Shown one piece after another: positions 5,650-28,171 of a stretch of 30,767 bases of DNA (position 1 is its first letter; each line of letters opens with the position of its first letter). The position numbers and the translations under genes were made by a program. The notes beneath the pieces are model-generated. The model was not told the origin of the DNA and made no database searches. It saw only the letters and a program-made list of their open reading frames with translations. The stretch comes from a virus: positions 1-30,767 of the IMG/VR virus record IMGVR_UViG_3300032304_000722; one strand, 5' to 3'.

Positions 5650-5840
5650 CCACGACCAAAGAAAACGACGTAATTGAACAGGCGATCGGAGCGGTTGAGT
5701 TGTACGCAACCATTGCGCACTTATTGATGGATATAGCTGAAACAGTTGATCATGTGAGCGTGGGCGGTGCTACCGATTACGAATTAAAGCTTATGTGTAT
5801 GCAGAAGCTAAAAGAGATCGTTAACAAAATTGAAATCTGA
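5646..5840 (+). CDS. Small helical hypothetical protein
   Basis: A 64-aa acidic, mostly helical protein, not recognised. It overlaps the preceding gene by 4 bases and the small terminase gene by 1 base, so it is translated as part of the packaging operon. There is no membrane segment, although the middle (AVELYATIAHLLMDIAETVDHV) is amphipathic. Confidence 0.6.
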   Translation: MTTTKENDVIEQAIGAVELYATIAHLLMDIAETVDHVSVGGATDYELKLMCMQKLKEIVNKIEI

Positions 5841-6280
5841 TGCCAAGCGGTGAACATTTAAAGGGCAAAAGTCCACACGGATTTGGAAGCCACCCCGAAA
5901 ACATCAATCGGAATGGACGCCCGAAGGCTTTGCGCAACGTGATCAAGGACTTATTCATTGAAGAGTTTAATGTTCAGCTATCTAGTAGCCAAGCCAACGA
6001 AATGATTATGGCAATGCTTTGCATGACTGAGCGACAAATCAGTGAACTTGGAGAACGTGACGATGTACCCTTTTGGTTGAAAATGATTAGCAAAAAGATG
6101 GAGCGTGATTTGAGCCGAGGTTCTATCCACTTGATGGAAGTTCTTTTTGACCGTGTTTATGGAAAGCCAAAGGAAACGATTGACAGTACGATATCGATGC
6201 CGAAAGCAGAAATCCACGTGGCCACGATTTCAAGTCCTATCGACCTTTCAAATAGTGAGGATGCAATTATTCTCGATTGA
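5840..6280 (+). CDS. terS: Terminase small subunit-like protein
   Basis: A 146-aa protein. It opens with a Gly/Asn/Pro-rich segment (GKSPHGFGSHPENINRNGRPK), typical of DUF5681-like and small-terminase-like phage proteins. A helical domain with MAMLCMTERQISEL and FWLKMISKKMERD follows. It lies directly upstream of the large terminase subunit (TGATG overlap), the standard place for the DNA-recognition subunit. It would bind the packaging site and load the large subunit. The assignment rests on position and on the N-terminal pattern. Confidence 0.65.
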   Translation: MPSGEHLKGKSPHGFGSHPENINRNGRPKALRNVIKDLFIEEFNVQLSSSQANEMIMAMLCMTERQISELGERDDVPFWLKMISKKMERDLSRGSIHLMEVLFDRVYGKPKETIDSTISMPKAEIHVATISSPIDLSNSEDAIILD

Positions 6281-6645
6281 TGTTTCAAACGTCTGTCATA
6301 TTCGATCGCAACTATAATTCCACTGCCGAGGTTATAGTTAACCAAGGCGGGACCAGTTGCTTCCATCGTGATACTCTTGTTGTTACCATTGATGGCAATA
6401 AGCCGATATCTGAAATTAAAGAAGGAGATGTTGTTTTATCTTTTAATGAAGTAACTAAAACAAAAGAGTGGAAGTTAGTTACTGAAAAATTTGAATATAA
6501 AAACACCAAGCCAACAATTAAAATAAAGTTGAGAAATGGAAGTGAAATAATTTGCACTGATGATCATTTATTTTATTTCAAGGGGGGTTGGATTTCTGCA
6601 AAACATTTAGTATCTTTAATACATGAAACAGATACCAAATTATAG
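6280..6645 (+). CDS. terL: Terminase large subunit N-extein fused to split-intein N-half
   Basis: A 121-aa protein. Residues 1-26 are the start of the terminase ATPase and end Asn-Gln-Gly-Gly-Thr-Ser, the first half of a Walker A loop. Residue 27 is Cys and begins an intein. Block A is CFHRDTLV ... GDVVLSFN, and block B has Thr-Asp-Asp-His (TDDH) followed by LFYFKGGWISAKHL. The frame then stops at TAG, giving an N-half of 95 residues, a normal size for a split intein. It cannot bind ATP by itself and must splice in trans with the product at 7123. The DNA from 6358 on is clearly richer in A and T than the extein. The ATG at 6280 overlaps the terS stop. Confidence 0.88.
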   Translation: MFQTSVIFDRNYNSTAEVIVNQGGTSCFHRDTLVVTIDGNKPISEIKEGDVVLSFNEVTKTKEWKLVTEKFEYKNTKPTIKIKLRNGSEIICTDDHLFYFKGGWISAKHLVSLIHETDTKL

Positions 6646-7254
6646 TCGCTATGTTCTTGATGAACAAGGAAACATTTACTCTACTAATTACAAAAATAGT
6701 GGTAAAACAAAAATTCTAAAACCAGCATTTCAAAAAGATGGTTATTTAAAAACCATGATTTTAGGAGATGATGGTAAATATTTAAGTAAATCAATTCATA
6801 AATTGATGGCATTAACATATTTCGGTAAGCATGATGGTTTACAGGTTAATCATAAGAATGGAATTAAGCATGATAATAGGCTTTGTAATCTTGAAATTGT
6901 TACCCGTGGCGAAAATATAAAACATGCTTATTTGAACGGATTGATTATACCTAAGCGTGGAGAGTTAAATGGAAATTCTAAATTAACTCAAAATGATGTA
7001 AAAGAGATCAGAGAATATGTAGCTAATTTCAAAGGAAGGTATTACGGAAGAAAAGAATTAGCTAAAAAATATGGCATTAGTGAGGCTCATTTAAAAGATA
7101 TTGTAAACGGACGCAGGGATATATGGATGGATTCATAAATATAGATGATATTGAAAGTTTTGAATATGTTGATTGTGAATTTGTTTACGATTTTACAGTT
7201 CAAGATAATCATTGCTATTTTATACATCCAAATAAAGATATATTAGTACATAAC
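6358..7254 (+). mobile_element. Split-intein/HNH homing element inside terL
   Basis: The insertion runs from the Cys codon of the intein N-half (6358) to the Asn codon at the end of the C-half (7252-7254), 897 bp in all. Removing it joins Gly-Gly-Thr-Ser to Ser-Gly-Lys-Thr, an intact Walker A motif. The element contains three overlapping frames: intein N-half, HNH endonuclease, intein C-half. It is AT-rich compared with both flanks, consistent with horizontal arrival by homing. Confidence 0.88.
6623..7138 (+). CDS. HNH homing endonuclease (NUMOD4-HNH type)
   Basis: A 171-aa protein in its own reading frame between the two intein halves. Residues 1-25 (KQIPNYSRYVLDEQGNIYS) match a NUMOD4-like DNA-binding start. 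Residues 58-105 carry the HNH core, with His in IHKLMA, Asn-His in QVNHKNGIKHDNR and Asn in CNLEIVT. The C-terminal part has a helix-turn-helix-like segment (RKELAKKYGISEAHLKDI). It should cut intein-less terL alleles and so spread the element. It overlaps the N-half gene by 23 bases and the C-half gene by 16, which allows coupled translation. Homing endonucleases usually lie in frame within inteins; here the gene is free-standing. Confidence 0.88.
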   Translation: MKQIPNYSRYVLDEQGNIYSTNYKNSGKTKILKPAFQKDGYLKTMILGDDGKYLSKSIHKLMALTYFGKHDGLQVNHKNGIKHDNRLCNLEIVTRGENIKHAYLNGLIIPKRGELNGNSKLTQNDVKEIREYVANFKGRYYGRKELAKKYGISEAHLKDIVNGRRDIWMDS

Positions 7255-8334
7255 TCGGGGAAAACTTACTCCATTCTCCAAGTGCTATGTTTAAAAGCGA
7301 TTGCTGAAAGTGATCAAGTTATTTCGGTTGTAGGTCAGGACGTGCCAAACCTTAAAAGCGGTGCGCTCAGGGATATGCAAACCATTGTAGCAAGTTCACC
7401 TGATATTCAAAGTTGGATTAAAGGATACAATGCGAGTGACCGTATTTATACATTTCACAACGGTTCAATTATAGAGTTCAAAAGCTATCAAGACCCGCAA
7501 GATGCAAAGAGCGGAAAACGTCATTACCTGTTTATGAATGAGGCGAACGGAATCAATTATTGGATATATTGGGAATTAGCACGAAGAACTAATAAACAGG
7601 TTTTTATTGACTACAACCCTAACGCTCGTTTTTGGGTACATGAAAAGTTGATAGGCAAAGAAGGAGTTGAGTTGATCATTAGCGACCACCGACACAACCC
7701 GTTTTTAAGTGACAAAACAAGGCGGGATATTGAAGGTATCAGAAATGAGGATGAGGAACTTTGGAAGGTGTACGCCCGTGGGATGACGGGTAAAATTGAA
7801 GGGTTAATCTACCGTAATTGGGGAACGATTGGAACAATACCAAGCGATGCTCAGTTGATTGGGTACGGGATGGACTTCGGATTTACGAACGACCCGACCG
7901 CAGTTGTTGGGGTGTACCGTTACAATGGTGAATTAATCATTGACGAAGTAATGTACCATAAAGGACTCACAAACCAAGATATTAGCCTTTTTATGACCAG
8001 TTGTTCAGTTGATAGAAGTGTGACGATTGTAGCGGATTCTGCAGAACCGAAATCAATCGAAGAACTTAGGCGCATGGGGTGGCGGATTGAAGGTGCCAAT
8101 AAAGGGAAAGACAGCATACTAAACGGGATTGATATATTAAAACGTTTCAGGTTTAACGTAACAAACCGATCGATTAACCTACTCAAAGAATTGAACGCCT
8201 ACAAATGGAAGGAAAAGGATGGTAACGCTACCAACGTACCCATTGATTCCTTCAACCACGGCATGGATGCTTTAAGGTATTTAGCGTTAAATAAATTAGC
8301 AGAAAAGAACAGGGGAAAATATGCAATACAATAA
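7123..8334 (+). CDS. terL: Split-intein C-half fused to terminase large subunit C-extein
   Basis: A 403-aa protein. Residues 1-44 are the intein C-half, with block F around VYDFTVQDNHCYF and block G ILVHN ending His43-Asn44. Ser45 is the +1 nucleophile and starts Ser-Gly-Lys-Thr, the second half of Walker A. The rest is a typical phage terminase motor and nuclease. It has a Walker B-like YLFMNEAN (Asn139-Glu140), a YNPNARFW motif, and nuclease acidic residues Asp251 (GMDFG), Asp305 (VADSAEP) and Asp382 (HGMDALRYL). The spliced enzyme would be about 385 aa. It pumps DNA into procapsids and cuts it. It overlaps the HNH gene by 16 bases and the next gene by 14. Confidence 0.9.
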   Translation: MDGFINIDDIESFEYVDCEFVYDFTVQDNHCYFIHPNKDILVHNSGKTYSILQVLCLKAIAESDQVISVVGQDVPNLKSGALRDMQTIVASSPDIQSWIKGYNASDRIYTFHNGSIIEFKSYQDPQDAKSGKRHYLFMNEANGINYWIYWELARRTNKQVFIDYNPNARFWVHEKLIGKEGVELIISDHRHNPFLSDKTRRDIEGIRNEDEELWKVYARGMTGKIEGLIYRNWGTIGTIPSDAQLIGYGMDFGFTNDPTAVVGVYRYNGELIIDEVMYHKGLTNQDISLFMTSCSVDRSVTIVADSAEPKSIEELRRMGWRIEGANKGKDSILNGIDILKRFRFNVTNRSINLLKELNAYKWKEKDGNATNVPIDSFNHGMDALRYLALNKLAEKNRGKYAIQ

Positions 8335-8938
8335 CATTTGGAAAAAATTAACGGTTGGGCAGTACCAACTTTTAGCCGACCTCAACCACTTGGAAGGGTG
8401 GGAGTATATGCGCTCGGTTGTAGCAATCGTGGAAGGTAACGGATTCGATGAGGTTGACAATTACCCGTTGATCGACTTACGCAAGCGATACGAAGCCATT
8501 GCCAAGCAGTTGGAGAAAGAACCGTTCAAACCTTTCAAATCGTTCGTAAAGATTGACGGAAAGCGATACTACGTTACACGATTCTTTGACGAAATAAACA
8601 CGGCTCAATTTGTGGAAATAAGTGAGTGGAATAAGACGAAAGAGGACGGAGTAAAGAACTTGCATTTGTGCGTTGCATCGTTACTGCGTGAAACGAAGTT
8701 CGGTTGGTTTCCTAAAAAGTACAACGGGAAGGACCATTCAAAACGTGCGACATTGGTGAAGGAAAAGATGTTAGCGGTTGAAGCGTTGGGGTTGTCCGCT
8801 TTTTTTTTGGCCAGTTGGGTGAAGTTGCTCGAAGATTTACCAACCTATTTGGACAAGGAAATGCAGACGTTGAAGGCGGAGATGGACGCCCTGACCTCGG
8901 AACAGGATTCACAGAGCGTTACGGGTGGATCGTTGTAA
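8321..8938 (+). CDS. Tail assembly chaperone-like protein (short form)
   Basis: A 205-aa protein whose middle (FVKIDGKRYYVTRFFDEINTAQFVEI ... NLHLCVASLL) resembles tail assembly chaperones of Bacteroidota phages by eye. Such proteins coat the tape measure before tail polymerisation. Near codon 160 the gene has nine T in a row (8800-8808) that fit the -1 slippery pattern T TTT TTT in the correct phase. The -1 frame is open from 8782 and continues to 9081, so a longer form is expected, as with the lambda G/GT pair. It overlaps the terminase gene by 14 bases. Its distance from the tape measure (three genes) is unusual. Confidence 0.65.
   Translation: MQYNNIWKKLTVGQYQLLADLNHLEGWEYMRSVVAIVEGNGFDEVDNYPLIDLRKRYEAIAKQLEKEPFKPFKSFVKIDGKRYYVTRFFDEINTAQFVEISEWNKTKEDGVKNLHLCVASLLRETKFGWFPKKYNGKDHSKRATLVKEKMLAVEALGLSAFFLASWVKLLEDLPTYLDKEMQTLKAEMDALTSEQDSQSVTGGSL
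8800..8806 (+). promoter_or_regulatory. Candidate -1 ribosomal slippery site
   Basis: The heptamer T TTT TTT is placed as required: the zero-frame codons are GCT TTT TTT TTG. Slipping back by one base enters a frame open to 9081. The T-run is 9 bases long (8800-8808), so a length error in sequencing is an alternative explanation. Confidence 0.5.
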
Positions 8939-27235: not shown

Positions 27236-27603
27236 TGAATTACCCCGACCCAACCAAAGAACAGTTAGCGATTACCCGTGCCGTGGTGTTGATGCAAGCC
27301 CTTGCGGAAACTTTGGATGACCTCAAAAGAACCAAGGCCTACCGTCAATCCTTAAAGAACCGATTGAACCTTTTAGAGCAGGACCTATCAATTTACCTCA
27401 ACACGCTTTCCGTAGCGTTTTGGGGTGAGGATGAAGAGTTAATGATGCAAATAAGTCGAGGCATTGATGCCGTTACGGGTGCGCTCGCTACGTGGCATCC
27501 TGCACAAATGGCGGTCATTGAAGACGTGTTAAACCAAATTGAAACCCAATTCAATGAAGCAACGCAGATTGACGGAGGAACAAAAGAAGTACATTCTGAA
27601 TAA
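27235..27603 (+). CDS. Hypothetical helical protein
   Basis: A 122-aa helical protein, not recognised. It has a coiled-coil stretch at residues 25-60 (LDDLKRTKAYRQSLKNRLN) and an acidic end. It overlaps the next gene by 50 bases in another frame, a longer overlap than usual here. Confidence 0.6.
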   Translation: MNYPDPTKEQLAITRAVVLMQALAETLDDLKRTKAYRQSLKNRLNLLEQDLSIYLNTLSVAFWGEDEELMMQISRGIDAVTGALATWHPAQMAVIEDVLNQIETQFNEATQIDGGTKEVHSE

Positions 27604-28171
27604 TTACCCATTTCAATACTCCAAAGATATTGCAGATCACCTCGGCTTTAATGTTTCAACTGTTTACAATTTTGCTCACCGAATGGACCTAAACAAAGAT
27701 GCAAAATTTAGAAGTGGAGAATTAAAAAAGCAAGGGGATAGATTAAGAGAAATTGGAAAGGTTGGAAGATTTGCCAAAGGACGAAAGCCACACAACTACG
27801 GTAAAAAGATGGATGCAGAAACTTACGAAAAAGTTAAAGCAACCATGTTTAAAAAAGGCTCGAAGCCACCGAACTGGAAGCCTGACGGATCGGAGAGAGT
27901 TGATGTAGAAGGTTACACAATGATCAAGGTAAATGGCAAGTATATTCAAAAACACGTGTACCTTTGGAATCAAAAGCACGGGGAAGTACCCAAAGGATAT
28001 GCGGTAATTTTCAAAGATAGAAACAACAAGAACCTAACTATTGAAAACCTTGAATTGGTTAGTCGTAAAGATTTGATGCTACGCAATACCATTCAACGAT
28101 ACGACCCCGAATTACAATTCACAATGAAAGTTTTATCAAAACTAAAAAAACAAATAGATGCCAAAAAATAA
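27554..28171 (+). CDS. HTH-HNH-like endonuclease
   Basis: A 205-aa protein. The N-terminal part has a helix-turn-helix (residues 8-40: EEQKKYILNNYPFQYSKDI then HLGFNVSTVYNFAHRMDL). A basic linker follows, then an HNH_3-like domain: HVYLWNQKHGEVPKGYAVIF, FKDRNNKNLTIENLELVSRKDL. The first catalytic His of the canonical VHH position is Phe in VIFKD, a variant I have seen in other phage members, so nuclease activity is uncertain. It may cut DNA near packaging or act as a homing nuclease. The ATG at 27554 is chosen; an in-frame TTG lies at 27539. Confidence 0.7.
   Translation: MKQRRLTEEQKKYILNNYPFQYSKDIADHLGFNVSTVYNFAHRMDLNKDAKFRSGELKKQGDRLREIGKVGRFAKGRKPHNYGKKMDAETYEKVKATMFKKGSKPPNWKPDGSERVDVEGYTMIKVNGKYIQKHVYLWNQKHGEVPKGYAVIFKDRNNKNLTIENLELVSRKDLMLRNTIQRYDPELQFTMKVLSKLKKQIDAKK

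What the first reader, a model, noticed from the sequence alone, without database searches (positions are those of the whole stretch)
6280..8334. Terminase large subunit broken into two genes by a split intein with a free-standing HNH endonuclease between the halves
Seen: three overlapping frames. The first ends the N-extein at Gly-Gly-Thr-Ser and starts an intein with Cys, with block A and block B (TDDH). The second is a NUMOD4-HNH endonuclease. The third ends an intein with His-Asn and resumes with Ser-Gly-Lys-Thr. Removing the element restores a perfect Walker A. Known: metagenomic 'fractured genes' have split inteins with a homing endonuclease gene between the halves, and the gp41-1 type split inteins come from that class. 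Inference: packaging depends on protein trans-splicing, since neither half has a complete ATP site. The overlaps (23 and 16 bases) suggest coupled translation of all three. The intein halves (95 and 44 aa) could be a new natural split pair.
Basis: partly seen in the sequence, partly recalled or inferred. Interest (0 to 1): 0.92.

Follow-up and report, generated by a model that had tools for sequence, protein, structure and literature searches.

The report
Split-intein terminase with nested homing nuclease
In this virus of bacteria the gene for the DNA-packaging motor is cut in two exactly inside its ATP site by a self-removing protein whose two halves sit on separate genes with a DNA-cutting (homing) enzyme gene between them, so the motor should work only after the halves find each other and join; relatives show the same enzyme gene hidden in another reading frame inside an uncut version, which suggests how such split proteins arise.

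Summary
ORF1 (6280-6645) ends an N-extein at ...VNQGGTS and starts a class 1 intein. ORF2 (6623-7138) is a NUMOD4-HNH homing endonuclease (I-HmuI family). ORF3 (7123-8334) ends the intein at HN and resumes SGKT of the terminase large subunit. Of 54 related terminases scored, 53 have an empty site; the exception, L045, carries the same 897-bp element. Ten split records (about eight lineages, one in a Bacteroidetes MAG) keep the three-gene order, with junctions overlapping or abutting but in varying relative frames, which argues against sequencing error and frameshift fusion. All parts are under purifying selection. Best reading: a split intein spread by the HNH enzyme, with trans-splicing restoring the ATP site (inferred, not shown): a 'fractured gene' of the known kind in a new setting. 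Across 19 records, T is never used where it would create an intein-frame stop (0/732), against 194/461 in split relatives. Split and nested forms look like alternative ways of housing one out-of-frame enzyme gene. A 2025 preprint I could not read may already report overlapping-frame inteins.

The parts
6280..6357 (+). N-extein of terminase large subunit (26 aa, MFQTSVIF...VNQGGTS), first half of Walker A; ATG overlaps the stop of the upstream gene (TGATG)
   Evidence: identical frame and sequence continue into SGKT in empty-site relatives
6358..6645 (+). intein N half (95 aa: Cys1, block A, block B TDDH) plus stop codon
   Evidence: Pfam PT-HINT 5e-11, Intein_splicing 2.7e-7; gp41-1 intein E 5e-11 with the family profile
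6623..7138 (+). free-standing NUMOD4-HNH homing endonuclease gene (171 aa), frame +1 to the intein halves
   Evidence: HNH_3 3.5e-8; I-HmuI 1u3e E 2.4e-23 by profile; AF2 pLDDT 90, Foldseek best hit I-HmuI 2.3e-8; dN/dS 0.08
7123..7254 (+). intein C half (44 aa, block F and terminal His-Asn)
   Evidence: last HN invariant in all split relatives
7255..8334 (+). C-extein: rest of terminase large subunit from Ser+1 GKT (359 aa plus stop)
   Evidence: Terminase_3 3e-10, Terminase_3C 8e-16; pN/pS 0.05 against nearest empty relative
6623..6645 (+). 23-nt overlap of N-half gene and HNH gene
   Evidence: overlap or abutment (0-32 nt) kept in all 10 split records
7123..7138 (+). 16-nt overlap of HNH gene and C-half gene
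   Evidence: 8 or 16 nt in all 10 split records
6358..7254 (+). whole mobile element (897 bp) as defined by empty sites
   Evidence: L045 element also 897 bp

Best explanation
A mobile, naturally split class 1 intein sits in the Walker A loop of the phage terminase large subunit. Three overlapping genes are translated separately: N-extein plus intein N half, the HNH homing endonuclease, and intein C half plus C-extein. The two intein halves associate, fold into one Hint domain and splice in trans, joining GGTS to SGKT and so restoring the ATP site of a 385-aa motor. The HNH enzyme cuts the empty Walker A allele of co-infecting relatives, and repair copies the element in. Shown: anatomy, empty sites, conserved catalytic residues, selection on every part, replicated gene order. 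Inferred: trans-splicing, cutting of the empty site, translational coupling. The split form and the continuous form, which carries a homologous gene hidden in frame +1, are alternative states of one intein family.
For: Anatomy and families. Exact empty site in 53 of 54 scored relatives of 60-98% identity, including one 97.8% identical to the window. Ten split records share gene order with varying relative frames. C1, block B His, terminal HN and Ser+1 are conserved. dN/dS: N-extein 0.04, intN 0.24, HNH 0.08, TerL 0.075; read in the wrong frames the HNH region gives 1.1 and 3.8. HNH is an I-HmuI homologue by sequence and fold. Hint/gp41-1 homology. The window shows excess differences in the first 120 nt 3' of the site against its nearest empty relative, rank 2 of 37, as co-conversion would leave.
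Against: No expression, splicing or cutting data. The co-conversion signal is weak and is not clear for L045. AlphaFold could not be run on the two halves together. Nothing shows that the HNH target is the Walker A sequence.
Confidence: 0.86

Rival explanations
1. Genes-in-pieces: an HNH gene broke the terminase and the two polypeptides work together without splicing, as reported for a phage ribonucleotide reductase (Friedrich et al., cited in PMC10448857).
For: HNH insertion between two coding pieces is a known outcome. TerL remains under purifying selection.
Against: Both sides carry complete intein halves with intact catalytic residues under purifying selection. The break lies inside the ATP-binding loop. 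Continuous mini-inteins without HNH occupy the same site.
Confidence: 0.05
2. A single continuous intein-HNH protein made by programmed frameshifts (or by sequencing errors) across the two overlaps.
For: In the window the N and C halves are in one frame and the HNH gene in +1, so two compensating shifts would join them.
Against: Relative frames differ among relatives (HNH +1, +2 or 0; C half 0, 1 or 2 relative to N). In L111 the HNH ATG follows the N-half stop directly. The overlaps differ in length and sequence. Several independent metagenomes show the split.
Confidence: 0.03
3. A group I intron carrying an HNH gene sits inside an intein or gene, with RNA splicing.
For: The best solved relative of the HNH protein, I-HmuI, is encoded by a group I intron (for the match; intron origin from general knowledge).
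Against: No Rfam match with E up to 1 in 5800-8400. There is no room for intron RNA: the HNH ORF overlaps the coding sequence on both sides. The C half has its own conserved ATG.
Confidence: 0.02
4. A decayed element: the terminase is a pseudogene in this contig.
For: The gene is broken into two ORFs in a metagenomic contig.
Against: Strong purifying selection on extein, intein halves and HNH; replicated architecture.
Confidence: 0.02

Closest known systems
Fractured genes with split inteins and an intervening homing endonuclease gene (Dassa et al. 2009; source of gp41-1, NrdJ-1, IMPDH-1)
   Same: Gene cut by two intein halves with a separate homing endonuclease gene between them; nearest solved structure of the N half is gp41-1.
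   Different: Host gene is terminase at the Walker A; the endonuclease is I-HmuI-like NUMOD4-HNH. From memory, the family in the 2009 paper was Vsr-like; that paper was not readable here. Relatives here also carry the nuclease in an overlapping frame.
AceL-TerL, GOS-TerL, Cat-TerL natural split inteins (review PMC11766414)
   Same: Natural split inteins in terminase large subunits from metagenomes.
   Different: Those are split atypically early (N part 25-37 aa, C part 104-115 aa) with Cys at +1; here 95/44 aa with Ser at +1. Whether their insertion site is the same was not checked.
Mycobacteriophage TerL1-a/-b P-loop inteins (PMC5050341)
   Same: Inteins inserted within the terminase Walker A; TerL1-b was shown there to splice and to cut an inteinless allele.
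   Different: Continuous inteins with a nuclease domain, in Terminase_1 of actinobacteriophages; here Terminase_3 and split.
ShiLan domain: HNH gene hidden in another frame of a phage methylase (PMC11855218)
   Same: HNH gene in an overlapping frame while the host frame stays open, as in the continuous relatives found here.
   Different: ShiLan has no intein and no detected splicing; here the host frame is a canonical intein, and the split form has dropped the open-frame constraint.
I-HmuI (PDB 1u3e)
   Same: HNH homing endonuclease with the same fold and nearly full-length profile match.
   Different: I-HmuI is encoded in a group I intron; no intron was found here.

Membership tests
Class 1 intein | N-terminal Cys/Ser, block B TxxH, penultimate His, terminal Asn, nucleophilic +1 residue | tested here: met
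   C1, TDDH, HN, Ser+1 in the window; C1, block B His and HN/Ser invariant in split relatives
Class 1 intein | Hint fold | tested here: met
   Pfam and PDB profile matches of the window's N half; the continuous sister intein L141 models as Hint at both ends, Foldseek best hits inteins. The window's own two halves could not be modelled together.
Class 1 intein | protein splicing activity | not testable with these tools
   needs expression
Naturally split intein | halves on separate ORFs that cannot be read as one | tested here: met
   26 frame-0 stops across the HNH gene; junction table
Naturally split intein | trans-splicing | not testable with these tools
   needs co-expression
Fractured gene (Dassa type) | split-intein halves flanking a free-standing homing endonuclease gene | tested here: met
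   ten records
Fractured gene (Dassa type) | same endonuclease family as described in 2009 | not tested
   paper not held; here I-HmuI-like HNH
NUMOD4-HNH homing endonuclease (I-HmuI family) | HNH_3 domain with NUMOD4 N-terminus and I-HmuI fold | tested here: met
   HNH_3 3.5e-8 met; NUMOD4 sub-threshold in the window but above it in L141; I-HmuI 2.4e-23 and Foldseek 2.3e-8
NUMOD4-HNH homing endonuclease (I-HmuI family) | cuts the empty allele | not testable with these tools
   target site unknown; presence/absence pattern only
Group I intron | conserved intron RNA flanking the ORF | tested here: not met
   no Rfam match, E up to 1
Genes-in-pieces without splicing | no intein halves at the break | tested here: not met
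   intein halves present on both sides

The most novel reading that the evidence does not exclude
Out-of-frame nuclease genes are one route by which natural split inteins arise and revert. An HNH gene enters the intein loop out of frame. Either the intein frame is kept open as a disordered tether (dual coding), or it is abandoned, fracturing the gene into three overlapping cistrons. Precise loss of the nuclease then restores a continuous mini-intein, as the sister pair L130 (split) and L135 (continuous) would suggest.
Probability: 0.4. Interest if true: 0.82.

Novelty: new variant of a known kind. Interest (0 to 1): 0.68.

Why it matters
It adds a family of natural 95/44-type split inteins, with close continuous and empty relatives as controls. 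If trans-splicing is required, an essential phage motor is assembled from two polypeptides. It also makes the origin of natural split inteins testable: one site shows empty, mini, dual-coding, split-with-nuclease and split-without-nuclease states. The dual-coding inteins (a nuclease gene read out of frame inside a splicing protein) are easily missed by annotation, because their linkers look like junk in the intein frame.

Tried and rejected
Group I intron (Rfam): rejected. Frameshift fusion or sequencing error: rejected by varying frames and replicated records. One search's stop-avoidance test used the wrong frame for nested loci and was redone correctly. In some searches the upstream flank comparison was misaligned or offset by one codon (the 'up75' numbers); one search uses the right coordinates. 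Protein-only searches for the intein N half found almost nothing beyond L045; DNA patterns over the splice junctions and the C-half alignment found the family. Campylobacter phage CPt10 looked like a cultured split-plus-nuclease example, but the two genes between its intein halves have no Pfam match, so it is only a lead. A search of cultured phages with the dual-coding intein L141 gave only a distant helicase intein-like match in Corynebacterium phage phi673. Dassa 2009, Gorbalenya 1998 and the Gosselin 2025 preprint could not be read.

Full report
WHAT IS THERE. The window is a 30,767-bp IMG/VR virus record. ORF1 starts at ATG 6280, overlapping the stop of the upstream gene (TGATG). It encodes 26 residues of terminase ending VNQGGTS and then an intein beginning CFHRDT, with block B TDDH, ending at stop 6645. 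ORF2, 6623-7138, is a 171-aa HNH protein. ORF3, 7123-8334, begins with 44 residues ending ILVHN, followed by SGKTYSIL, the rest of the terminase. Pfam gives PT-HINT 5e-11 and Intein_splicing 2.7e-7 for ORF1, HNH_3 3.5e-8 (NUMOD4 0.013, below cut-off) for ORF2, and Terminase_3 3e-10 and Terminase_3C 8e-16 for ORF3. The nearest solved relative of the N half is the gp41-1 intein (4.7e-6 single sequence; 5e-11 with a 10-sequence profile).

EMPTY SITES. A search with the C-extein found 61 related viral loci. Of 54 whose junction could be read, 53 are uninterrupted at this point, most reading VNQGGTS-SGKT (four have Walker A variants GGSN/GGSG-AGKT), and one, L045, is interrupted. The nearest relative, L002, is 97.8% identical in TerL and empty; L045's near relative L037 is 99.2% identical and empty. 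The element is therefore exactly 6358-7254 (897 bp), present or absent between near-identical alleles.

THE SAME ELEMENT ELSEWHERE. L045 has the same three ORFs, collinear without a gap over 1,061 bp, with the same 897-bp element; protein identities are 68% (N half), 81% (HNH) and 82% (ORF3). DNA patterns over the two splice junctions, a C-half alignment and one genome-collection scan extended the family. Ten split-plus-HNH records representing about eight distinct lineages were read in detail (window, L045, L095, L097, L104, L105/L122, L108/L121, L111, L130, L181). L181 is from an uncultured Bacteroidetes MAG. All keep the order N half, HNH, C half. The HNH start overlaps the end of the N-half gene by up to 32 nt or abuts it, and the C-half ATG opens an 8- or 16-nt overlap with the HNH gene. 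The relative frames vary (HNH +1, +2 or 0; C half 0, 1 or 2), and in L111 the HNH ATG follows the N-half stop directly. Frameshift fusion or sequencing error cannot explain this; separately initiated, probably coupled genes can. Coupling itself is inferred.

SELECTION. Window against L045: dN/dS 0.04 for the N-extein, 0.24 intein N half, 0.08 HNH, 0.075 C-extein; intein C half dN 0.13 with saturated dS. The HNH region read in the other two frames gives 1.1 and 3.8. TerL against near empty relatives gives pN/pS 0.05 (window, L002) and 0.02 (L045, L037). So the spliced protein, both intein halves and the nuclease are all maintained. The HNH family is I-HmuI-like: profile match to 1u3e at 2.4e-23, AlphaFold2 model pLDDT 90, Foldseek best hit I-HmuI 2.3e-8. 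No Rfam family, introns included, matches 5800-8400.

MECHANISM. Shown: a canonical class 1 intein divided between two genes, a homing-endonuclease gene between them, exact empty alleles, and conserved catalytic residues. Inferred from intein biochemistry: the halves assemble, splice in trans and restore GGTSSGKT. Inferred from homing: the HNH enzyme cuts the empty allele. In support of homing, the window differs from L002 by 23 of 120 nt just 3' of the site against 64 of 837 further on, the second highest excess among 37 terminases tested; L045 ranks only eighth, so this is suggestive. For P-loop TerL inteins of mycobacteriophages, splicing and cutting of an inteinless allele have been shown experimentally (PMC5050341).

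THE UNEXPECTED PART. At the same Walker A site other phages carry continuous inteins of about 300 residues, whose middle 165-173 residues resemble nothing. That middle is the out-of-frame reading of an intact NUMOD4-HNH gene in frame +1 (Pfam HNH_3 5e-9 and NUMOD4 1.7e-8 for L141). In 19 such records the third base of an HNH codon is never T where that would create a frame-0 stop (0/732 codons where T is synonymous), against 677/1,410 elsewhere; in the ten split records it is 194/461 against 345/659. Synonymous recoding predicts 16-20 frame-0 stops per element; continuous ones have 0, split ones 11-26, with no intermediates. The zero count follows in part from calling these records continuous, and several of the 19 are near-copies; the expected counts and the gap between the classes do not depend on that. 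Pairwise pN/pS in the middle is 0.06-0.32 in the HNH frame and about 1.2-2.1 in the intein frame: the nuclease is conserved, while the intein frame is kept open but free in sequence. AlphaFold2 of L141 gives confident Hint segments at residues 1-96 and 257-301 and disorder between (pLDDT mostly 24-46), with intein structures as best Foldseek hits.

RELATION OF THE STATES. In a tree of the Hint segments the window falls in a 13-row group (99/99) with all ten split-plus-HNH rows, one split row without HNH (L112) and two continuous mini-inteins. The mini-intein L135 is sister to the split L130 (96/89; 99/100 in the terminase tree). Sixteen of the dual-coding inteins form a separate group (98/97), with L136 loosely placed. 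The tree needs three changes between split and continuous states, and the HNH genes of both groups are homologous. The direction of change is not settled. In the window, L045 and L181 the halves keep one frame and the HNH gene sits in +1, the geometry of the dual-coding form, which would fit descent from it but does not prove it.

COMPARISON AND NOVELTY. The arrangement is that of 'fractured genes' (Dassa et al. 2009, known here only through citations and general knowledge). Terminase split inteins are known (AceL-TerL, GOS-TerL, Cat-TerL) but split at 25-37 residues with Cys+1 (PMC11766414). A hidden out-of-frame HNH without an intein is known (ShiLan domain, PMC11855218); that paper cites a 2025 preprint on actinobacteriophage inteins of non-canonical architecture that could not be read and that may already describe overlapping-frame inteins. 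I therefore rate the finding a new variant of a known kind.

Noticed in passing
L154:5111-5920; also L158:1107-1916; L137:5453-6436 and L138:3019-4002: Further inteins with an out-of-frame HNH gene (frame +2). In L154/L158 the intein interrupts what looks like a terminase at ...C-DALRYSI, and the L154 record also carries the Walker A intein with an HNH in frame +1. No stops in the intein frame (P about 0.001-0.014 by recoding).
   Followed up: partly
L112:1927-2540; L150:1158-1799: Split inteins at Walker A sites whose halves are separated by a small ORF without a recognised nuclease (66 aa in a terminase; 88 aa, cysteine-rich, in another P-loop protein).
   Followed up: partly
L182 (Campylobacter phage CPt10) 2187-6254: Ribonucleotide reductase gene annotated as disrupted carries an intein N half like the window's and two unrecognised genes within the interruption: a possible cultured split-intein example.
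   Followed up: partly
window 27539-28171 +: A second HNH_3 protein (2.2e-13) with a helix-turn-helix-like N-terminus, possibly another homing endonuclease.
   Followed up: no
L002:2928-4473: The nearest empty-site relative carries a ParB-like gene and a C5-methylase-like gene just upstream of the small gene before TerL, absent from the window (assigned by eye from the sequences).
   Followed up: no
L014, L039, L040, L041 at the empty site: Walker A variants GGSN/GGSG-AGKT right at the insertion point among otherwise close relatives; could be alleles resistant to the HNH enzyme (speculation).
   Followed up: no
L110:4870-5841; L113 (minus strand): Continuous inteins before [ST]GKT in other P-loop proteins that seem by eye to carry an HNH-like motif in frame, the conventional arrangement.
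   Followed up: no
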